Below, piece by piece: positions 25,072 through 34,775 of a DNA stretch of 64,000 nt; position 1 is the first letter of the stretch, and each line of letters begins with the position of its first letter. A program made the position numbers and the translations under genes. The stretch is from Xanthomonas hortorum pv. pelargonii. Lineage in GTDB: Bacteria > Pseudomonadota > Gammaproteobacteria > Xanthomonadales > Xanthomonadaceae. The notes under the pieces are model-generated. The model ran no database searches. It was not told the DNA's origin and saw only the letters and a program-made list of their open reading frames with translations. The DNA lies in contig NZ_CP098604.1 in the NCBI RefSeq assembly GCF_024499015.1, forward strand, positions 4,278,001 through 4,342,000. The letters are read 5' to 3'.

Positions 25072-25163
25072 GCTACGGTTGGGCCTGCCATGCCGAACGC
25101 TTCCCTAACGCGGCGGTGGCCGGCTTGGCGTAATGTCCGCGTCTCACACAGGGGCGACATGTG

Positions 25164-26201
25164 ATGCGACGCAAGGGGGCGGTGTGGGGAGCCGGATTGA
25201 TGCTGGTGTCGCTGCTGGCGGCGGCCAGCGATAGCGCCACGCCGAAAGTGGCTGCGCCACCGCCACCGCCACCGCCACCGCCACCGGCGGTGGTCGATCT
25301 GGACGCGATGGTGGTGCGCGGCGTGCAACCCGGCCCGGGCTTGTGGAAGGTCAGCAAGGGCGATCAGGTGTTGTGGATCCTGGGCACCTTGTCGCCATTG
25401 CCGAAGCGGCTGCAGTGGCAGTCGACCGAGGTGGAAACGATCATCGGGCAGTCCCAGCAGGTCCTGATGGCGCCGACCGTGCAGATCGATGCGGACATGG
25501 GATTTTTCGGCAAGTTGACCTTGCTGCCGTCCGCGATGAAGGCGATGAAGAACGAAGACGGCCGCGAACTACGCGAGGTGTTGCCTCCCGATCTGTATGC
25601 CCGTTGGAGCCTGGCCAAGGCACGCTATATCGGTGGCGATCGGGGTGTGGAGCGCAAGCGCCCGATGCTTGCCGCCGGTGAGTTGTATCAGGCGGCGATC
25701 AAGCGCTCCGGCCTGGCCCGTTCGCCGGTGATCTGGTCGGTGGTGGAGCGTGCCGCCAAGCGCGCAGGTATCAAACCGACACCTACGGCGCTGGACTACA
25801 AGATCAAGGACCCGCGCCAGGCCATCAAGGAATTCCGTGCCGGCGGCATGGACGATACCGCGTGCTTTCGCAGCATTCTGGTGACAGTGGAGCGCGATCT
25901 GCCCACGATGGTCGAGCGCGCCAACGCATGGTCGGTGGGCGATATCGAAGCGCTGCGCCAACTGCCGCGCGAAGATCCGCAGGCCGCCTGCATGAGCGCG
26001 ATGGCCAGCTCCGGTGCGGCCAGGGCGCGTGGTATCGACGATCTCGAACGCCGCATGCGCGAGCCTTGGCTGAGCATCGCCACCACGGCGTTGCAACGCA
26101 ATCGCAGTACCTTCGCGGTGCTGCCGATCAGCCGGTTGACGGCGCCGGATGGATATCTCGCACGGCTGCAGGCGATGGGATATGCGGTGGAGGCGCCGTA
26201 A
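25164..26201 (+). CDS. gumN: TraB/GumN-family protein
   Basis: A 345-aa exported protein of the TraB/GumN family (haem- or protease-like fold, function unsettled). An N-terminal signal peptide is followed by a run of about ten prolines encoded by a CCACCG repeat (25255-25290), then the family start GLWKVSKGDQVLWILGTLSP. The usual GxH of the family first motif is replaced by GTLSP, so metal binding may be lost. A GTG one codon upstream is an alternative start. It lies in the gum extension shared by xanthomonads but outside the core xanthan enzymes. Confidence 0.82.
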   Translation: MRRKGAVWGAGLMLVSLLAAASDSATPKVAAPPPPPPPPPPAVVDLDAMVVRGVQPGPGLWKVSKGDQVLWILGTLSPLPKRLQWQSTEVETIIGQSQQVLMAPTVQIDADMGFFGKLTLLPSAMKAMKNEDGRELREVLPPDLYARWSLAKARYIGGDRGVERKRPMLAAGELYQAAIKRSGLARSPVIWSVVERAAKRAGIKPTPTALDYKIKDPRQAIKEFRAGGMDDTACFRSILVTVERDLPTMVERANAWSVGDIEALRQLPREDPQAACMSAMASSGAARARGIDDLERRMREPWLSIATTALQRNRSTFAVLPISRLTAPDGYLARLQAMGYAVEAP

Positions 26202-26315
26202 GCGCAGCAGGTTCGATGGCCGCTCCTAAGGCTTGATAGGCCGCGCCATGAACTTCTTCGTCTGAAGGCGATGCGCAGCGTGCGATCAATCGAGTCGGCC
26301 AACGCCAGCCACGTT

Positions 26316-27347
26316 ATGCTGCGCGCCTTGTCCAATGAGACCTCCGCGTTGAACGCATTGCCGCTGCGCATTCTGGGCACCGGGCGCCATGTCCCCGCGA
26401 CGGAGGTGACCTCGCAACAATTGGACGCGCGCTGGCAGTTGCCGGCGGGCACCACGTTCGCGCGCTCTGGCGTGGCCAGCCGCCATTACGTGGGCGAGGG
26501 CGAGACCGCATCGTCGATGGGCGCCGCCGCCGCGACCCAGGCGCTGGCCAGCGCCGGCATCGAGGCCGGCGACATCGATTGCCTGATCTCGGCCTGCAGC
26601 GTCATGGAGCAGCCGATTCCCTGCCAGGCGGTATTGATCCAGCGCGCGCTTGGCCTGGGCGATTCTGGCATTCCCGCGTTCGACGTCAATGCGACCTGTC
26701 TGAGTTTTCTGGTGGCATTGGACATGGCCGCCAATGCGTTGGCGCTCGGGCGCTATCAGCGCGTCTTGATCGTCTCCAGCGAGGTCGCATCGGGCGGGCT
26801 GGATGCATCGGCGCCGGCTACGGCCGGGTTGTTTGGCGACGGTGCGGCTGCAGTGATCGTGGGACGCAGCGCTGCGGAAGACGGCTCGGCATTGCTGTCC
26901 AGCCGCCTGTGCAGTTATGGCGATGGCGCGGAGCTGTGCCGTATTCGCGGCGGCGGCACGCGTTATCCGCGTGGCGAAGAAAGTGCGCCCGATGCCTTGC
27001 GCACCTTCAGTATGGATGGACGCGGCGCCTACCGCTTCGCGGCGCGCTACCTGCCTACCTTCTGGGAGCAATTGCTGCGCGAGGCGGGCACCACCACAGA
27101 CGCCTTGCGCTGCTTTGTGCCGCATCAGGCCTCCGGCGGCGGTCTGGATCATGTGGTGCAGGCCTTGGGGCTGCGCCCCGATCAGGTGATTCGCATCCTG
27201 CATGCCACCGGCAATCAGGTCGCCGCATCGTTGCCGCACGCCTTGCATCACGCGCGGATCGAGCAGCGTTTGCAACGCGGCGATCTGTTCGCACTGCTCG
27301 GCACCGGCGCCGGGCTGGCGATCGGCGGCATGGTATTGCGGTACTAG
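26316..27347 (+). CDS. gumO: KASIII-like 3-oxoacyl-ACP synthase GumO
   Basis: A FabH/KASIII-type thiolase-fold condensing enzyme (343 aa). The active-site cysteine is Cys128 in VNATCLSF; histidine and asparagine follow in VPHQAS and ATGNQVAAS, completing the Cys-His-Asn triad. Such enzymes condense or transfer acyl groups from CoA or ACP. It heads a run of five more closely packed genes, which suggests it makes an acyl precursor for them and not general fatty acids. The start is uncertain: an in-frame codon at 26271 would add 15 residues. Confidence 0.85.
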   Translation: MLRALSNETSALNALPLRILGTGRHVPATEVTSQQLDARWQLPAGTTFARSGVASRHYVGEGETASSMGAAAATQALASAGIEAGDIDCLISACSVMEQPIPCQAVLIQRALGLGDSGIPAFDVNATCLSFLVALDMAANALALGRYQRVLIVSSEVASGGLDASAPATAGLFGDGAAAVIVGRSAAEDGSALLSSRLCSYGDGAELCRIRGGGTRYPRGEESAPDALRTFSMDGRGAYRFAARYLPTFWEQLLREAGTTTDALRCFVPHQASGGGLDHVVQALGLRPDQVIRILHATGNQVAASLPHALHHARIEQRLQRGDLFALLGTGAGLAIGGMVLRY

Positions 27348-27382
27348 GACGTGTACTCACTTCCCGAACAGGTCGTGTCCTG

Positions 27383-28231
27383 ATGCCGCCGCGCGTGTCG
27401 CTGGAGTTGCTGCGCATCGGCCATTGCCGCCACTGCGAGCGCATGGTGCGTGCGGACGGGCGCTGGCATGCAGTGGAGTTCCCGGCATTGAGCGTGCTGA
27501 TTCGGCATCCGCAGCGTGGCGCACTGCTGTACGACACTGGCTATGCCGAGCATTTCTTTCGCGCCACCGATCCCTGGCCCGAGCGCCTGTACCGCTGGAC
27601 CACGCCGGTGAGTTTGCCCGCGCACGAAACGCTGGGCGCGCAGTTGGCACGTCGCGGCGTGCAGCTGGAGGAGATTGCCTGGTGCCTGATTTCGCACTTC
27701 CATGCCGACCATGTCGGCGGCCTGCGTGATCTGCCGAATGCGCGCTTCATCTGCCTGCGTGCGGATTATCAACAGCTGCGCAGTTGTTCGCGCCTTGGCG
27801 GCCTGCGCCGCGCCTTGTTGCCGCAGCTGCTACCCGCCGATTTCGACCGACGGCTGCAGTTTGCCGAGCAAGCACCGGTGCGTGCGCTGACCGGTGCCTG
27901 GCAAGGGTTGGGCGCGGCCTACGATCTGTTCGAAGACGGCAGCGTGCTGGCCGTGCCGTTGCCCGGACACGTGCCTGGGCAGATGGGCCTGTGGTTACGC
28001 GATCAGCACGACCGCGAGGTGTTGCTGTGTGCCGACGCGGTGTGGTCGTCGGCGACGTGGGCAACGCTGCAGTGGCCAGCATGGCCCACGCGTTTATTGA
28101 TGCACGATTGGGCAGCGTTTCAACGCACGGTGCATCAGTTGCACGGGCTGTCGCAAGCGCATCTCGAGCTGGCGATCCTGCCGTCGCATTGCCAGCCCAG
28201 CCTTGACCGTTATCAACCGGAGTGGCGATGA
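27383..28231 (+). CDS. gumP: Metallo-beta-lactamase-fold hydrolase GumP
   Basis: A 282-aa MBL-fold hydrolase of the AttM/AiiA-like group. The metal-binding motif HFHADH is at residues 105-110, with a further His in LPGHVPGQMG, an Asp in LLCADAVW and a late His in LPSHCQ. Members hydrolyse lactones, thioesters or related esters. It follows gumO by 35 bp and overlaps the next gene by four bases, so it probably acts on the gumO product or a downstream lactone. The exact start is not fixed. Confidence 0.85.
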   Translation: MPPRVSLELLRIGHCRHCERMVRADGRWHAVEFPALSVLIRHPQRGALLYDTGYAEHFFRATDPWPERLYRWTTPVSLPAHETLGAQLARRGVQLEEIAWCLISHFHADHVGGLRDLPNARFICLRADYQQLRSCSRLGGLRRALLPQLLPADFDRRLQFAEQAPVRALTGAWQGLGAAYDLFEDGSVLAVPLPGHVPGQMGLWLRDQHDREVLLCADAVWSSATWATLQWPAWPTRLLMHDWAAFQRTVHQLHGLSQAHLELAILPSHCQPSLDRYQPEWR

Positions 28232-29187
28232 GCCTGCGCATTCTCGTGACCGGCGCGTCCGGTTTTGTCGGTGGTTCGTTCCTGCGGCGTTTCCAGGGCC
28301 AGCCGGGTGTGGAGATCCATGGCATCGGTCGCCGCGCCAGCGATCTACCCAACTACCATCGCATCGATCTGAGCCGGCCATTCTCGCTGGAGTGGCAGCC
28401 GGATGTGGTGATTCACGCAGCCGCGCTGGCATCGCCGTGGGGCACGCGCGCGCAGTTCCAGCTGCATAACGTAGAGGCCACCGCCAACGTCATCGATTTC
28501 TGCACGCGCAATGGCTGCCCGCGTCTGCTGTATGTGTCGTCCAGTTCAGTGTTCTATCGCGAGGCACATCAATACGACCTCACCGAAGAAAGCCCGATCG
28601 GACCGGCGTTCGTCAATACCTACGCGCAGACCAAATATCTGGGCGAAACCTTGCTCGATCACTATCCAGGCGAGAAATCCGTGCTGCGCCCACGCGCAGT
28701 GTTCGGGCCGGGAGATACGGTGCTGTTCCCGCGCGTGATCGCCGCGGCGCGCAAAGGCGCGCTGCCACGCTTTGTCGGCCAGACCCAGCCGGTGATCGGC
28801 GATCTGATCTACATCGATACGTTGTGCGATTATCTGTATCGCGCGGCCACCGCGCCGCGGTTGCAGCCGGCCTACAACCTCACCAATGCACAGCCGGTGG
28901 ATCTGCAGCAGCTGCTAATGGACTTGCTGACGCGCCTGCAGCTGCCGTTGCCGCAGCGCGAGGTACGTATCGCAACCGCGCTGCGCATGGCAAGCGTGGT
29001 GGAAGCGGCCTACCGCCTGCTGCGGCTGCGCGGCGAACCGCCGATCACCCGCTTCGGTGTTGGCGCATTTGCTTATTCGAAGACCTTCGATCCGCGACGC
29101 ACGCTCGCCGATCTCGGGCAACCCAGCGTTGGCCTGGAAGAAGGTATCGAGGCGTTCGTGCGTTGGCAGGCGGCGCAATGGACGTAG
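28228..29187 (+). CDS. NAD(P)-dependent epimerase/dehydratase (extended SDR)
   Basis: An extended short-chain dehydrogenase/reductase (319 aa). The Rossmann motif TGASGFVG starts at residue 8 and the catalytic YxxxK is Tyr132-Lys136 (TYAQTK), preceded by the SSSSVFY serine segment. It resembles 3-beta-HSD/OleD-like reductases acting on long-chain keto substrates as well as sugar epimerases. Overlap with gumP (ATGA) and with the following glycosyltransferase (10 bp) ties it to this operon. Confidence 0.85.
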   Translation: MSLRILVTGASGFVGGSFLRRFQGQPGVEIHGIGRRASDLPNYHRIDLSRPFSLEWQPDVVIHAAALASPWGTRAQFQLHNVEATANVIDFCTRNGCPRLLYVSSSSVFYREAHQYDLTEESPIGPAFVNTYAQTKYLGETLLDHYPGEKSVLRPRAVFGPGDTVLFPRVIAAARKGALPRFVGQTQPVIGDLIYIDTLCDYLYRAATAPRLQPAYNLTNAQPVDLQQLLMDLLTRLQLPLPQREVRIATALRMASVVEAAYRLLRLRGEPPITRFGVGAFAYSKTFDPRRTLADLGQPSVGLEEGIEAFVRWQAAQWT

Positions 29188-30071
29188 CCGCACTGGCGTT
29201 GGCAGCGGCCTATCTGGCGGTGCTGATGGTCAAGACGGGGGCGGTGCTGTGGGTCGTGCACGATACACGCGCGCGGCCATCGAGCGATGCCGCTACAACC
29301 CAGGCCGAGGTGGCGATATTGCAACCCATCCTCGGCGGCGACGCGCATTTGCAGCAGGTGCTTGCCGCCAACCTGCAAGCACTGCCGGATGCACACTTCA
29401 TCTGGTTGCTGGATGCGGAGGATCGCGCAGGAAATACGGTTGCCGATACATTGGTGACTCTGTATCCGCAGCGATGCATCGAGCGCGTGCTGGTGCCTCC
29501 GGCGCCACCTGGTGTAAATCCGAAAGCATGGAAACTCGACTGCGCGCTGCCGCATGTGTGCGCACCGATCAGCCTGATCCTCGACGACGATGCGCAGCTG
29601 ACCAACAACGCGCTCGCACGGTTGTTGCAGGATCTGACCCACGCCGATGTGGTCACTGCGCTGCCGTATTACCAGGACAGCGCAACGCTGCCAGGCCGCC
29701 TGTTGTCGCAGTTCGTCAACAACAATGCAGCGCTCACCTATCTGGGCTGGCTGCCGTTCGCCGCGCCGCTGACCATCAATGGCATGTGCTATGCCGCCCG
29801 CACCGAACAGCTGCGCACCTGGGGTGGGTTTGCGGGGTTGCTGGAGCAGCTGACTGACGATCTGGCGTTTGCAACACTGGTGCGTGAGCGCGGTGGGCGA
29901 GTGTGCCAATCCACTGCAGCGGTGGCGATGCGCACTGCGATGCCCGATCTTGCGAGTTACCTGCGTCAGATGCATCGGTGGATGTTGTTCGCGCTGATCC
30001 TGCTGCGCCGTCAGACGTTGGGCGTACGCAGCGCAATTTTCGTACTGCAGGGCTGCCGCCGCTGTTGCTGA
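29178..30071 (+). CDS. Ceramide glucosyltransferase/HpnI-like GT2, frameshifted N-terminal part
   Basis: An N-terminal membrane helix (about 5-27) leads into a GT2/GT21 catalytic domain with ILQPILGG, the DDD motif at residues 136-138 (LILDDDAQL), a later LTDDLAF and the QxxRW motif (QMHRW). These are hallmarks of ceramide glucosyltransferases and hopanoid HpnI, which glycosylate lipids at the membrane. The frame stops early at 30069 after an odd tail, GCRRCC, while the expected C-terminal membrane segment continues in another frame. One G missing from the run at 30050-30052 would restore a 384-aa protein. As it stands the product is truncated and probably inactive. Confidence 0.8.
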   Translation: MDVAALALAAAYLAVLMVKTGAVLWVVHDTRARPSSDAATTQAEVAILQPILGGDAHLQQVLAANLQALPDAHFIWLLDAEDRAGNTVADTLVTLYPQRCIERVLVPPAPPGVNPKAWKLDCALPHVCAPISLILDDDAQLTNNALARLLQDLTHADVVTALPYYQDSATLPGRLLSQFVNNNAALTYLGWLPFAAPLTINGMCYAARTEQLRTWGGFAGLLEQLTDDLAFATLVRERGGRVCQSTAAVAMRTAMPDLASYLRQMHRWMLFALILLRRQTLGVRSAIFVLQGCRRCC

Positions 30072-30331
30072 CGGGCTTGCTGCTGTCTGTGTGCGTGCAG
30101 CCAACATGGCTGGCCATCGCATGTGCGCTGACTACGTTGCTGCTGCGTGCCTTGTTGCTGTGCCTGGTGCAATGGCGCGTCAGCGGAGCGATTCGTCACC
30201 GGCCATTGCTGTCGATTTGCGCCGAAGTTCTACAGCCGCTGCATCTGCTGCACGCAGCTGTGGTGCGCACGATCCGCTGGCGCACGCGTCGTTACCGCGT
30301 ATTCCCGGATGGGCGTTTTCGTGCCGATTGA
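30053..30331 (+). pseudogene. Out-of-frame C-terminal part of the HpnI-like glycosyltransferase
   Basis: In the -1 frame relative to the upstream gene this reads LPPLLLTGLLLSVCVQPTWL, continues with hydrophobic helices and ends RYRVFPDGRF, the kind of membrane tail and basic motif that closes HpnI-like transferases. It has no start of its own. Joining it at the G run gives the usual family length. Its stop overlaps the next gene start by 23 bp, as expected for the ancestral reading frame in this packed operon. Confidence 0.75.
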
Positions 30332-30926
30332 CAGCGCTACTGTGCAAATTGCCTTCCTTACCGGGCAAAGCGATCCGCAGCGCTGCGCGTTGAGCGTCGA
30401 ACAGCAGCACTTCTTGCAGCAGCTGCAAGGCCCGGGCCGGCAACTGATCGACTGCAATTATCCGTATCGCCCCGATCGCGCTGCGCACCGGCGCACGCCA
30501 CTCTGGCGCGCCAGTCTCTCCAACGCGCGGCAGTACCTGGCCGCACGCGCCGCACGCGTTGCGGACGCCGATCGCGTGCGCATCGTGGCGCTGCTGGAGC
30601 AGGCGCCGATCACGGTAGTGCTGGCAGGCAGTTGCGGCCTGCAGTTGCTCACCGCGCTGCAGCTTCCTCACGCGTTACGTGCACGTCTGGCGGTGTTCGC
30701 CTACGGTCCGGTCTGCACTGCGCCCGCGTCGTTCGGGCAGATGCGCGTGTTGCAAGGGCAGCGCGACTGGATCTCGCGCGTGCTGTTCGGTGCTGCGATC
30801 GATCTGGCACCCGCGTGCGGGCACATGGATTACCTGCGTAACGCGGCGGTGCTCGCCGATTGCCAGGTGTTCATCGCGCGGCTTGAACAAGCCGTGCAGG
30901 GGGAGGGCAGATGCGCATCGATCTGA
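30309..30926 (+). CDS. Unassigned protein, possible alpha/beta hydrolase-like
   Basis: I do not recognise this 205-aa protein. It is soluble, Arg- and Ala-rich, with no signal peptide. VVLAGSCGLQLLTAL near residue 103 looks like a nucleophile elbow of the A-x-S-x-G type, and a late CGHMDYLRN could supply a histidine and aspartate, so a small alpha/beta hydrolase is possible but unproven. It overlaps both neighbours (23 bp and 16 bp), which implies coupled translation and a role in the same pathway. Confidence 0.65.
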   Translation: MGVFVPIDSATVQIAFLTGQSDPQRCALSVEQQHFLQQLQGPGRQLIDCNYPYRPDRAAHRRTPLWRASLSNARQYLAARAARVADADRVRIVALLEQAPITVVLAGSCGLQLLTALQLPHALRARLAVFAYGPVCTAPASFGQMRVLQGQRDWISRVLFGAAIDLAPACGHMDYLRNAAVLADCQVFIARLEQAVQGEGRCASI

Positions 30927-32167
30927 TCGCGCCGCCATATAGCGGGCACCTGCATCCGATCCTTGCGATCGCCCGTCAGTTGGCGCCATATCACCAGGTG
31001 CAGGTCATCAGCACGCCGGCGGCGCAGGCGCGCATCCGTGCATGCGGGCTGAGCGCAGTCAGTGTGCTGGATGCGCAAGCCGATCGGCTGTTGCTGGAGA
31101 TCGCCAACCCACCGCATGCGGTGGGCCACCACCCGTTGCGCTTGCGTCGACAACTGCACAACGCGCTTGGGTTGATGGCGCGGATGGGGGATGTGCTGAA
31201 AGCGCGCTGGCGCGAGCGAAGGCCGGACCTGGTGATCGTCGATTTCACCTTGCCCAGCGCGGGACTGGCGGCGCAGGCGATGGACATCGCGTGGTGGACC
31301 AGCATGCCGTCGCCGTGCGTGATCGAAACCAGCGACGGTCCTCCCGCGTATTTCGGTGGTCTGCTGCCGGCGACCAGCGCAAGACAGCGCATCTGGCATG
31401 CAGTGGCGCGGCGGCTTACGCGTGGCTTCAAGCGGACCCTGCACGCATGCTATCGCCGCCGGATGCATGCCTGCGGATTGCCGGCGATCTATCGCCGCGA
31501 TCGCAGCGAGGCGGTGTACTCGCCGCTCTGCATTCTTGCCTTGGGCCTGCCGTCGTTCGAGTTAGCGCAGCGCTGGCCTGCGGCGGTGCGCTTCGTCGGG
31601 CCACAGCTGTGTACGCCGCCCGCATCGGTTGCGCCGCCTGCGTTTGTCGCCGGGAGGCGGCATGTGCTGGTGACGCTGGGCACGCATCTGCAGTGGGTCA
31701 AACACTGCATGGATGCGGTACTGCGCGCGCTGGCGCCGCAGTTTCCGGACGTGATCTTCCATTTCAGCGATGGCGACACCGCAGCGCCGCAGCAACAGGG
31801 CCATGGCAACTATCAGCGTCTGCCGTATGTGGACTATGCGCAGCACCTGCAGCGTTACGCGCTGGTGGTGCACCATGGCGGCGCTGGCATTCTGTATGCC
31901 TGCCTGGCCGCAGGCTTGCCATCGATCGTGTACCCGCTGGACTACGACCAGTTCGACCACGCCGCTCGCCTGCAGGTCGCCGGAGCAGCGTGGTGGTTGC
32001 GCGAGTTGGATGGCTTGCCGGCACTGCTGCGCGAAGCGCTTGGCACGAGCGAGCTGCCGTCAGGCGTACATCGATTGCAGACGGAGCTGCACGCCATCGA
32101 TGCGCAGGCACGCATCGTGCGGTTGGTGGATGCGTTTGCGCAGACCGGTGCGGTGCCGCAGGTCTGA
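30911..32167 (+). CDS. GT1-family glycosyltransferase (UGT/MGT-like)
   Basis: A 418-aa GT-B glycosyltransferase of the GT1 type that glycosylates lipids and natural products. The N-terminus APPYSGHLHPILAIARQL is typical for the acceptor domain, and the donor-binding signature VVHHGGAGILYACLAAGLPS with DYDQFDHA lies in the C-terminal domain. GGGAG precedes the ATG. As the last gene of the gumO-led row it probably decorates a small acyl product; the acceptor is unknown. Confidence 0.88.
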   Translation: MRIDLIAPPYSGHLHPILAIARQLAPYHQVQVISTPAAQARIRACGLSAVSVLDAQADRLLLEIANPPHAVGHHPLRLRRQLHNALGLMARMGDVLKARWRERRPDLVIVDFTLPSAGLAAQAMDIAWWTSMPSPCVIETSDGPPAYFGGLLPATSARQRIWHAVARRLTRGFKRTLHACYRRRMHACGLPAIYRRDRSEAVYSPLCILALGLPSFELAQRWPAAVRFVGPQLCTPPASVAPPAFVAGRRHVLVTLGTHLQWVKHCMDAVLRALAPQFPDVIFHFSDGDTAAPQQQGHGNYQRLPYVDYAQHLQRYALVVHHGGAGILYACLAAGLPSIVYPLDYDQFDHAARLQVAGAAWWLRELDGLPALLREALGTSELPSGVHRLQTELHAIDAQARIVRLVDAFAQTGAVPQV

Positions 32168-32671: not shown

Positions 32672-34588
32672 TCAACCCGCAGCCGCATTCAACGACGGCG
32701 CCTTGCTTGCCATCAGCTGCGGCCAACGCTTGAGCACGGCGGCACGGATACCGGCCTGATCAATGCCAGCATCGGCCAGCAGGTCTTCGCGGCTGGCGTG
32801 GTGCTGGAAGCTGTCGGGCAGGCCCAGGTGCAACATCGGCATGGTGATCGCTTCGGCATTGAGCAGCTCTGCCACGCCCGAGCCGGCGCCGCCGGCAACG
32901 ACGTTGTCTTCGATGGTGACGAAGCCTTCGTGGCTCTTGGCCAGTTCCAGCAGCATGGCTTTGTCGAGCGGTTTGACGAAGCGCATGTTGACCACGGTCA
33001 GGCCGAGTTCGCGCCCGACCGCTTCTGCCGCATCCACGCTCGCGCCGAAGCCGAGCAGGGCGATGCGTGCGCCGTTATGGCGCAGCTGCGCCTTGCCGAT
33101 CGGCAAGGTGGTGAGCGATGTGTCGAGCGTACTGCCGGGGCCTGTGCCACGCGGGTAGCGCACTGCTGCCGGGCCTTCGTAGCGCACGCCGGTGGTCAGC
33201 ATCTGGCGGCACTCGGCTTCGTCGGCCGGCGCCATCACCACCATGTGCGGCACGCAGCGCAGGAAGCTCAGATCCAGATTGCCTGCATGGGTGGCGCCAT
33301 CCGGGCCGACCACGCCGCCGCGATCGATCGCAAACAGCACGTCGAGCTTCTGCACCGCCACGTCGTGCACCAACTGGTCGTAGCCGCGCTGCAGGAAGGT
33401 GGAATAGATCGCCACCACCGGTTTGGCGCCCTGGGTCGCCATGCCGGCGGCCAGGGTGACCGCATGTTGCTCCGCAATCGCCACGTCGAAATAGCGCTGC
33501 GGATACTCCTTGCTGAAACGCACCAGGCCCGAGCCTTCGCGCATTGCCGGAGTGATCACCAGCAGCGTTGGCTCGGCCGCGGCCATGTCGCAGACCCAGT
33601 CGCTGAAGACATCGGTATAGGTCGGCTTCTTGGCGCCGGCCTTGGCAATCAGGCCCTTGCTCGGATCGAACGGACCCACCGCGTGGTAGCCGATCTGGTC
33701 GCCTTCGGCGAGCTCGTAGCCCTTGCCCTTGGTGGTGATGACGTGCAGCAACTGCGGGCCCTTGAGCGTCTGCAAGGTCTTCAGTGCGCCAACCAGGGTG
33801 GGCAGGTCGTGGCCGTCGATCGGGCCGGTGTAGTGGAAGCCCATTTCTTCGAACAACGTGGACGGCACGAACATGCCTTTCCAGTGTTCTTCCCAGCGCC
33901 GCACGAAGCGCGCGGTAGGGTTGTTCTTCTTGTCGCCGAGGATCTTCTTGCCGCCCTCGCGGATCGCGTTGAGCGTGCGGCTGCCGCTGGCACGGCCCAG
34001 CATCTTGGTCAGCCCGCCGACCGCCTCGGAGATCGACATGCGGTTGTCGTTGAGGATCACCAGCAGGTTCGGCTCCGGATCCATGCCGCCGGCGTGGTTG
34101 AGCGCTTCGTAGACCATGCCGGCAGTCATCGCGCCGTCGCCGATCACCGCGACCACCTTGCGCTCGTCGCCGTTGCGCTGCGCGGCGATCGCCATGCCGA
34201 GCGCCGCCGAGATCGAGGTCGACGAATGGCCGACGCCGAAGGTGTCGTAGATGCTTTCTTCGCGCTTGGGAAACGGCGCCACGCCGTCCTTCTGCTTGAC
34301 CGTGTGGATCTGGTCGCGACGGCCGGTGAGGATCTTGTGCGGGTAGGTCTGATGGCCCACGTCCCACACCAGCTGATCGACCGGGGTCTGATACAGGTAG
34401 TGCAGGGCGACGGTGAGTTCGATCACACCCAGGCCCGCCGCGAAGTGACCGCCGCTCTTGCCTACCGACTCGATGAGGTAGGCACGCAGTTCTTCGGCGA
34501 TCGCCGTGAGCTCGGCCTCGTCGAAGCGACGCAGATCGTCAGGGGTCTGGATGCGCGACAGGCGCGGATAGCGGGTGGAATCGATCAT
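32672..34588 (-). CDS. dxs: 1-deoxy-D-xylulose-5-phosphate synthase
   Basis: DXS (638 aa) condenses pyruvate and glyceraldehyde-3-phosphate in the first step of the MEP isoprenoid pathway, which also supplies the undecaprenyl carrier used by the gum enzymes. The thiamine diphosphate motif [18 protein letters not shown] and the transketolase central domain are intact. The start [12 protein letters not shown] matches the family; longer in-frame sequence upstream is not conserved-looking. Confidence 0.97.
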
Positions 34589-34775
34589 CATCGTGTCAAT
34601 GTTCTGAAGCCATATTGTCCTCCCCATGCGAAGGCCCGGCAAGCAAACCGGTTCAGCTGTCAGCGGGAAGTGATGGCTGCGCTCGCCGCCATTGCTGGCG
34701 GGCGCATTGAACGCCTGCGCATGCGGCAATCTGCCGCACCCGGTTGGACGCGCAGATGCATGCTGGGCGCGCGAA

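What the first reader, a model, noticed from the sequence alone, without database searches (positions are those of the whole stretch)
26316..32167. Uncharacterised KASIII-MBL-SDR-glycosyltransferase operon attached to the gum locus
Six genes overlap or nearly touch: a KASIII-like enzyme with a complete Cys-His-Asn triad, an MBL-fold hydrolase, an extended SDR, an HpnI/ceramide glucosyltransferase-like GT2, an unassigned 205-aa protein and a GT1. The overlaps of 4, 10, 23 and 16 bp imply one co-regulated pathway. None of these is a known xanthan enzyme. The set reads as acyl condensation, reduction, hydrolysis and glycosylation; the condensing enzyme plus OleD-like SDR recalls the long-chain olefin/beta-lactone logic with an MBL hydrolase. 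A glycolipid or acyl-glycoside is my inference.
Basis: partly seen in the sequence, partly recalled or inferred. Interest (0 to 1): 0.78.

Follow-up and report, generated by a model that had tools for sequence, protein, structure and literature searches.

The report
Six-gene glycolipid-like cassette beside gum
Next to the genes for xanthan gum lies a separate six-gene set that probably builds a sugar-bearing lipid; the same set occurs away from gum genes in very different bacteria, and its product is not known.

Summary
27 of 35 genus genomes hold all six without a premature stop. The set is independent of xanthan: gumM is in 35 of 35 genus genomes, while the set is absent in 4, decayed in 1 and in pieces in 1. 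It also occurs in Lysobacter-type, Gemmatimonadota, Verrucomicrobiota and one actinomycete locus, with no gum or dxs match there. Its KASIII-SDR-MBL part belongs to a much wider operon family, usually with an adenylate-forming enzyme (60 of 80 loci). The ketosynthase is nearest to MxnB/CorB, which join two chains in myxopyronin and corallopyronin; it is neither FabH nor OleA. The 205-aa protein is a small alpha/beta-hydrolase without a Pfam or NCBIfam family. Most likely product: a hydroxylated acyl chain with one or two sugars; this is inference. gumO, gumP and chd2 are named in papers without function; my searches found no description of the whole set.

The parts
26316..27347 (+). KASIII-type ketosynthase (gumO); longer start at 26271 possible
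   Evidence: PF08541 90.7 bits, PF08545 77.1; nearest solved relatives MxnB 4v2p 244 bits and CorB 4yuc 234; C143, H285, N315 in 67 of 67 family rows
27383..28231 (+). Metallo-beta-lactamase-fold hydrolase (gumP)
   Evidence: PF00753 57.1 bits; H105, H107, D109, H110, H196, D218, H269 in 80 of 80 rows, Trp in 79 of 80 where aligned lactonases show Tyr
28228..29187 (+). Extended SDR reductase (probably chd2 of the literature; that equation is my inference)
   Evidence: PF01370 95.2 bits; Tyr132 and Lys136 in 74 of 74; cassette SDRs fall in one 19-row clade, 100/100, that also holds L086 and L119
29178..30071 (+). GT2 (GT21/HpnI-like) glycosyltransferase, first piece; frame broken near 29990-30070
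   Evidence: PF13506 124.4 bits, TIGR03472 65.1 bits on profile 5-269; D136-D138, D227-D228 and R267-W268 (L064 numbering) invariant in 12 relatives and present in this piece
30068..30331 (+). Second piece of the same GT2 gene (C-terminal part) in another frame
   Evidence: TIGR03472 19.6 bits on profile 293-370; 63-97% identical to the matching part in 15 genus loci
30309..30926 (+). 205-aa small alpha/beta-hydrolase without a Pfam or NCBIfam family
30911..32167 (+). GT1-type glycosyltransferase
   Evidence: PF04101 41.7 bits, PF00201 23.9; HHGGAG at residue 321 and SGHLHP at 11; nearest solved 9ke1 rhamnosyltransferase 54.8 bits
25161..26201 (+). gumN, upstream flank (not part of the cassette)
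   Evidence: PF01963 103.3 bits
32672..34729 (-). dxs, downstream flank (not part of the cassette)
   Evidence: PF13292 386.9 bits

Best explanation
A laterally inherited six-gene biosynthetic cassette parked between gumN and dxs, unrelated to xanthan, that makes a glycosylated hydroxy-acyl lipid. Proposed order: (1) the ketosynthase loads a long, possibly iso-branched, acyl chain on Cys143 and joins it to an activated second unit (malonyl- or beta-ketoacyl-thioester) to give a beta-keto chain; (2) the MBL enzyme hydrolyses the thioester and releases it; (3) the SDR reduces the keto group to a hydroxyl; (4) the GT2 puts a first sugar on that hydroxyl and GT1 a second; (5) the small alpha/beta-hydrolase trims or transfers an acyl or ester group. 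Shown: gene set, conservation, families, conserved catalytic residues, independence from xanthan genes. Inferred: every reaction, the substrate and the order. In this strain the broken GT2 would be expected to stop or shorten the pathway at the first sugar, unless the break is a sequencing error.
For: All six in 27 of 35 genus genomes with no premature stop; no genome has a clean subset: the other 8 are the window's (GT2 broken), one noisy assembly, two decayed or in pieces and four with none. Same set in 4 phyla without gum or dxs matches in 13 of 13 loci outside Xanthomonas; 4-bp overlaps also in Verrucomicrobiota and Gemmatimonadota. dN/dS 0.04-0.31 against 9 relatives, GT2 by its first piece. 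KASIII 39-40% identical to MxnB/CorB; at the OleA Glu117 position Ile116, aliphatic in 67 of 67 family rows and Val in MxnB/CorB, Phe in the FabH rows; the tree places MxnB/CorB inside the family. The wider core carries changing modules that fit a lipid with an acceptor group: glycosyltransferases here, a sulfotransferase directly after KASIII in L112 and divergent in L164 and L169, DUF3419 in L167. In 7 Lysobacter-type loci the cassette follows leucine dehydrogenase and isovaleryl-CoA dehydrogenase on the same strand, a source of branched acyl-CoA.
Against: No product, mutant phenotype or enzyme assay was found. The 5 of 5 six-gene loci outside Lysobacterales also hold an adenylate-forming enzyme (L074, L087, L094, L121 between MBL and SDR; L110 after MBL) that is missing in 35 of 35 Xanthomonas genomes, so Xanthomonas may run a shortened or different route. 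MxnB/CorB make alpha-pyrones, which would need no SDR or MBL. The aliphatic residue at the Glu117 position is not diagnostic: an unrelated paralogue in this genome (L002) has Ile there too. No acyl carrier protein lies in the cassette. Many of the outside loci are metagenome assemblies.
Confidence: 0.5

Rival explanations
1. Alpha-pyrone or related two-chain product: the ketosynthase joins two beta-ketoacyl chains as MxnB/CorB do, and MBL and SDR act on the resulting lactone or diketone before glycosylation.
For: KASIII is closest to MxnB/CorB among solved structures and MxnB/CorB fall inside its family tree with 99/95 and 100/98 support; the MBL family resembles lactonases.
Against: 39-40% identity is no proof of the same reaction; myxopyronin substrates are carrier-protein bound (PMC5724707, passages) and no carrier protein is here; MBL has Trp in place of the lactonase Tyr; the branch to MxnB/CorB is long (0.95).
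Confidence: 0.2
2. A second olefin or beta-lactone pathway: KASIII and SDR stand for OleA and OleD, and MBL replaces OleB.
For: SDR weakly matches OleD (142.5 bits); 14 of 80 wider loci, all in Chloroflexota or Trueperaceae, hold an OleC-like ligase (458 bits for L100) near SDR, MBL and, where the contig reaches, KASIII.
Against: No Glu at the OleA position; SDR far below the OleD cut-off; no OleB or OleC in the cassette; the genome has its own ole genes elsewhere.
Confidence: 0.07
3. Accessory part of xanthan biosynthesis or export, such as lipid-linked precursor supply.
For: [quoted passage not shown]
Against: gumM in 35 of 35 genomes but the set missing or decayed in 6; no gum or dxs match near the set in 13 of 13 loci outside Xanthomonas; papers state no shown role or call it questionable (PMC2585010, PMC4468381, passages).
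Confidence: 0.05
4. A catabolic or signal-quenching set: MBL as lactonase and the small hydrolase as esterase degrade a foreign lipid or lactone, glycosyltransferases inactivate it.
For: MBL hits AHL lactonases first; GT1 resembles macrolide glycosyltransferases (TIGR01426, 52.5 bits).
Against: A condensing enzyme stands in each of the 16 complete sets, which points to synthesis; the best lactonase model is far below cut-off (73.7 against 390); catalytic Tyr absent.
Confidence: 0.08
5. Decaying leftover: the set is on its way out and has no present function in this strain.
For: GT2 broken here; decay or loss in 6 other genus genomes.
Against: dN/dS 0.04-0.31 and five other genes open, though such values also reflect past selection; 27 of 35 genomes keep all six.
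Confidence: 0.1

Closest known systems
gumO, gumP and chd2 beside the Xanthomonas gum operon
   Same: These are the first genes of this cassette by position and annotation (PMC2585010, PMC4468381, PMC5554336, passages; chd2 as the SDR is my inference).
   Different: In the passages read they are treated as extra gum genes or host-group markers; none describes a six-gene unit or copies outside Xanthomonas.
MxnB and CorB, chain-joining ketosynthases of myxopyronin and corallopyronin
   Same: 39-40% identity, Cys-His-Asn, aliphatic residue at the OleA Glu117 position; nested in the same tree.
   Different: They act on carrier-protein-bound PKS chains (PMC5724707, passages); here there is no PKS or carrier protein in the set, but SDR, MBL, GTs and a hydrolase.
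OleABCD olefin pathway
   Same: Thiolase-fold condensing enzyme plus OleD-like SDR; some relatives add an OleC-like ligase.
   Different: No catalytic Glu, no OleB/OleC, SDR below cut-off; a separate ole set exists in this genome.
GT21 ceramide glucosyltransferase / HpnI
   Same: GT21 Pfam domain and conserved DDD, DD and RW motifs.
   Different: Far below the HpnI cut-off (65.1 against 310); no squalene-hopene cyclase match in this genome.
AttM/AiiA/GcL-type AHL lactonases
   Same: MBL fold with all seven metal ligands.
   Different: Trp for the lactonase Tyr, scores far below cut-offs.
PqsD-PqsE (KASIII-like enzyme and MBL thioesterase of quinolone synthesis; recalled)
   Same: A KASIII-like enzyme paired with an MBL-fold thioesterase.
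   Different: PqsD (as I read the entry 3h76) is a distant match (92 bits) and PqsE was not among the 18 matches.

Membership tests
Xanthan biosynthesis (gum operon) | Kept and lost together with the gum genes | tested here: not met
   gumM 35 of 35, set missing or decayed in 6 of 35; no gum or dxs match in 13 of 13 six-gene loci outside Xanthomonas
OleABCD | OleA Glu117 base | tested here: not met
   Ile116 in the window, I/M/L/V in 67 of 67 family rows; own OleA has Glu
OleABCD | SDR above the OleD model cut-off (580) | tested here: not met
   142.5 bits; own OleD 616.9
OleABCD | OleB and OleC in the set | tested here: not met
   None recognised among the six genes; the 205-aa hydrolase is of the same broad fold as OleB but matches no model
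MxnB/CorB-type ketosynthase | Cys-His-Asn triad with aliphatic residue at the Glu117 position | tested here: met
   C143, H285, N315, I116; an unrelated paralogue, L002, also has Ile there
MxnB/CorB-type ketosynthase | Groups with MxnB/CorB apart from FabH and OleA | tested here: inconclusive
   MxnB/CorB nest in the family at 99/95 with Bacteroidota and Chloroflexota, not next to the window; the branch around the whole family is 89/90, root at midpoint, OleA branch long
MxnB/CorB-type ketosynthase | Joins two long chains into an alpha-pyrone | not testable with these tools
   Needs enzyme assay
FabH | Above FabH model cut-off (292.1) | tested here: not met
   TIGR00747 208.8 bits
AHL lactonase | Metal ligands HxHxDH, H, D, H | tested here: met
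   80 of 80; the HxHxDH part was in a search pattern
AHL lactonase | Catalytic Tyr three residues after the bridging Asp (role recalled) | tested here: not met
   Trp in 79 of 80, Phe in 1; DAxY seen in the aligned lactonases
AHL lactonase | Above AttM cut-off (390) | tested here: not met
   73.7 bits
GT21 | Pfam PF13506 above cut-off and the D, D, D, RW motifs | tested here: met
   124.4 bits against 21.7 on the first piece; motifs in A4
HpnI (hopanoid) | Above HpnI cut-off (310) in a hopanoid-making genome | tested here: not met
   65.1 and 19.6 bits on the two pieces; no SQHop cyclase match in own genome
Macrolide glycosyltransferase (MGT) | Above TIGR01426 cut-off (260) | tested here: not met
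   52.5 bits
Serine alpha/beta-hydrolase (205-aa protein) | Alpha/beta-hydrolase fold | tested here: met
Serine alpha/beta-hydrolase (205-aa protein) | Conserved nucleophile, acid and His in the expected order | tested here: met
   S108, D153, H172 in 20 of 20; geometry in the model was not measured
KASIII-SDR-MBL core family seen here | Adenylate-forming enzyme beside the core | tested here: not met
   None in the window; TIGR02304 in 0 of 35 genus genomes; 60 of 80 loci have TIGR02304-like or OleC-like ligases

The most novel reading that the evidence does not exclude
An undescribed, phylum-spanning and partly plasmid-borne family of biosynthetic operons shares a KASIII-SDR-MBL core (usually with an F390-synthetase-related ligase) that builds a hydroxylated two-chain or elongated acyl backbone, onto which different lineages bolt different head-group modules: sugars (this cassette), sulfate, a BtaA-like (DUF3419) group, GNAT/ATP-grasp/Rieske chemistry. 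The chain-joining ketosynthases of the antibiotics myxopyronin and corallopyronin grew out of this family, and the Xanthomonas branch makes a new glycolipid.
Probability: 0.35. Interest if true: 0.82.

Novelty: new variant of a known kind. Interest (0 to 1): 0.62.

Why it matters
gumO and gumP have been carried as doubtful xanthan genes, and two papers suggest that they may mark eudicot-infecting lineages (PMC4468381, PMC5554336, passages). Reading them as the first two of six genes of a separate, transferable pathway makes the question testable: delete the set in a laboratory strain and look for a missing lipid. If the core family is what it looks like, it is a widespread source of unseen lipids or signals, and it gives the myxopyronin/corallopyronin ketosynthases a possible origin.
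Full report
WHAT IS THERE. The window lies at G000:C1:4278001-4342000 of a 5.3 Mb genome of a Xanthomonas: the nearest named loci are Xanthomonas sp. LMG 31884 and other Xanthomonas. Between gumN (25161-26201) and dxs (32672-34729, minus) six genes follow one another on the plus strand. Intact copies exist in relatives. I searched the pieces apart and mended nothing.

GENUS SURVEY. In 35 genus genomes gumM is present in 35. The cassette SDR is present at 88% identity or more in 29, and G172 has fragments. All six genes are matched over at least 85% of the reference in 27 of 35. A recheck of these 27 for stops found only the natural end of the 205-aa gene (residue 204 of a 210-aa reference) and, in G150, one stop at residue 6 of the long KASIII form, before the likely start. 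The other eight: G000 itself has only GT2 broken; G170 shows breaks in KASIII, MBL, gumN and also in dxs, so assembly noise is likely; G172 has pieces of four genes, no MBL, and a GT1 with a stop at residue 295 of 418; G092 has pieces of KASIII and MBL at a contig end; G153, G163, G164 and G168 have none, with gumM and dxs on the same stretch. The set therefore comes and goes as a block while gum stays. Papers report the same for gumO and gumP: no shown role in xanthan (PMC2585010, passages), absent from X. fragariae (PMC4408752 and PMC4046712, passages), and absent from several monocot-infecting lineages (PMC4468381 and PMC5554336, passages).

SELECTION. dN/dS between the window and nine relatives is 0.09-0.18 for KASIII, 0.05-0.12 for MBL, 0.04-0.10 for SDR, 0.15-0.22 for the first GT2 piece, 0.16-0.31 for the 205-aa gene and 0.13-0.19 for GT1.

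OUTSIDE THE GENUS. In 149 family genomes the 205-aa protein was found in 9: five of the genus, three of one other genus and one weak match without the other genes. In that other genus all six genes stand in the same order (L044-L046). All six genes were found in 16 of these 80: 5 Xanthomonas, 6 Lysobacter-type, 1 Gemmatimonadota, 3 Verrucomicrobiota, 1 actinomycete metagenome genome; in 15 they are colinear, in L110 they form two convergent groups. No gum or dxs protein of the window matches 13 of 13 six-gene loci outside Xanthomonas that I checked (E 1e-8; 8.8-20.8 kb each; L075, the same contig as L045, left out). Stops and starts overlap by 4 bp at many joints in these distant loci too. The places were chosen by MBL patterns, so the counts are not a random sample, and many are metagenome assemblies; L094 (Luteolibacter marinus) is titled as a strain. 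In seven Lysobacter-type loci (L044, L046, L069, L071, L073, L075, L090) the cassette follows leucine dehydrogenase and isovaleryl-CoA dehydrogenase on the same strand, closely in six and after a 2.6-kb gap in L071; L072 lacks them.

THE WIDER CORE. KASIII, SDR and MBL lie within 7 kb of each other in 68 of the 80 loci; in 9 of the other 12 a contig end lies within 3 kb of MBL. 46 loci add a TIGR02304-like ligase ('F390 synthetase-related'; three tested members score 310.8-454.2 against a cut-off of 251.9) and 14 others an OleC-like ligase (the L100 member scores 458 on the OleC model, cut-off 900), together 60 of 80. Further companions are a 371-aa protein (37 of 80; the plasmid-borne copy in L166 is annotated GNAT), an ATP-grasp protein (35) and a Rieske protein (13). 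Plasmid records hold relatives too: MBL in 13 records and KASIII in 26 at the limits used. I read 11 of these regions: 10 list KASIII, SDR and MBL together; the E. coli record L165 lists SDR and MBL only, from an incomplete table, and L168 lists no ligase. Sulfotransferases stand divergent to the core in L164 and L169 and directly after KASIII in L112; L167 has DUF3419 (that DUF3419 includes BtaA-type enzymes is recalled). In Xanthomonas the ligase is missing: TIGR02304 in 0 of 35 genomes.

KETOSYNTHASE. The nearest solved relatives are MxnB (244 bits) and CorB (234), ahead of the best FabH (162) and a PQS enzyme (92, PqsD as I read it); OleA structures score 50-62 in the 60 rows shown of 78. 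Identity is 39-40% to MxnB/CorB, 31-33% to FabH rows, 27% to the own OleA. The triad is complete in 67 of 67 family rows. At the position of OleA Glu117 and PpyS Glu105 the family has I, M, L or V in 67 of 67, MxnB/CorB have Val, three FabH-group rows have Phe and the own OleA has Glu; against this, an unrelated paralogue (L002) also has Ile, so the residue alone does not define the family (that Glu acts as base in OleA and PpyS and is V94 in MxnB/CorB: PMC4578411, section 0 part 1 of 3). In a tree of 74 rows MxnB/CorB sit inside the family, next to Chloroflexota and Trueperaceae rows (100/98) within a 22-row group (99/95), while FabH and OleA fall outside; the branch around the family has 89/90, the root is a midpoint and two outside rows are very long. 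MxnB has two tunnels for two long chains (PMC5724707, passages). No Glu means that an unactivated acyl chain is an unlikely nucleophile; malonyl or beta-ketoacyl partners are likelier. That is inference.

VERDICT. I could not find the six-gene unit, the core family or a link of it to MxnB/CorB in print (searches; open-licence papers only, mostly listings). The glycolipid reading is the best available at about even odds; the single-pathway, xanthan-independent reading I hold at about 0.9.

Noticed in passing
29178-30331: The GT2 gene is split by a frame change near 29990-30070 in this assembly; the conserved DDD, DD and RW motifs lie before it, the C-terminal part after it.
   Followed up: partly
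G000:C1:2753727-2764251 (L163): The same genome carries a separate olefin set: an OleA with its Glu (PRK09258 over cut-off), OleC and OleD over their cut-offs, and an OleB-like hydrolase below the haloalkane dehalogenase cut-off.
   Followed up: yes
L096:13479-15815 (Planktothrix): A core KASIII stands next to a GT2 of the same family (27% identical to an intact Xanthomonas copy), some 2.7 kb from MBL.
   Followed up: no
L082:13233-14348 and relatives: A 371-aa protein of the wider core without Pfam or NCBIfam match in L082; the protein at the same place in L166 reaches the GNAT domain PF13480 only just.
   Followed up: partly
L165 (E. coli plasmid pBone4_5): SDR and MBL of the core near a fatty acid desaturase on a large plasmid from a clinical isolate; the gene table is incomplete.
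   Followed up: no
L056 and L068 (X. phaseoli ATCC 49119): Several frame breaks, dxs included in L056, suggest a noisy assembly.
   Followed up: partly
L144:11707-12252: In G092 a KASIII piece runs into an MBL piece at a contig end, as if an internal deletion had fused them.
   Followed up: no
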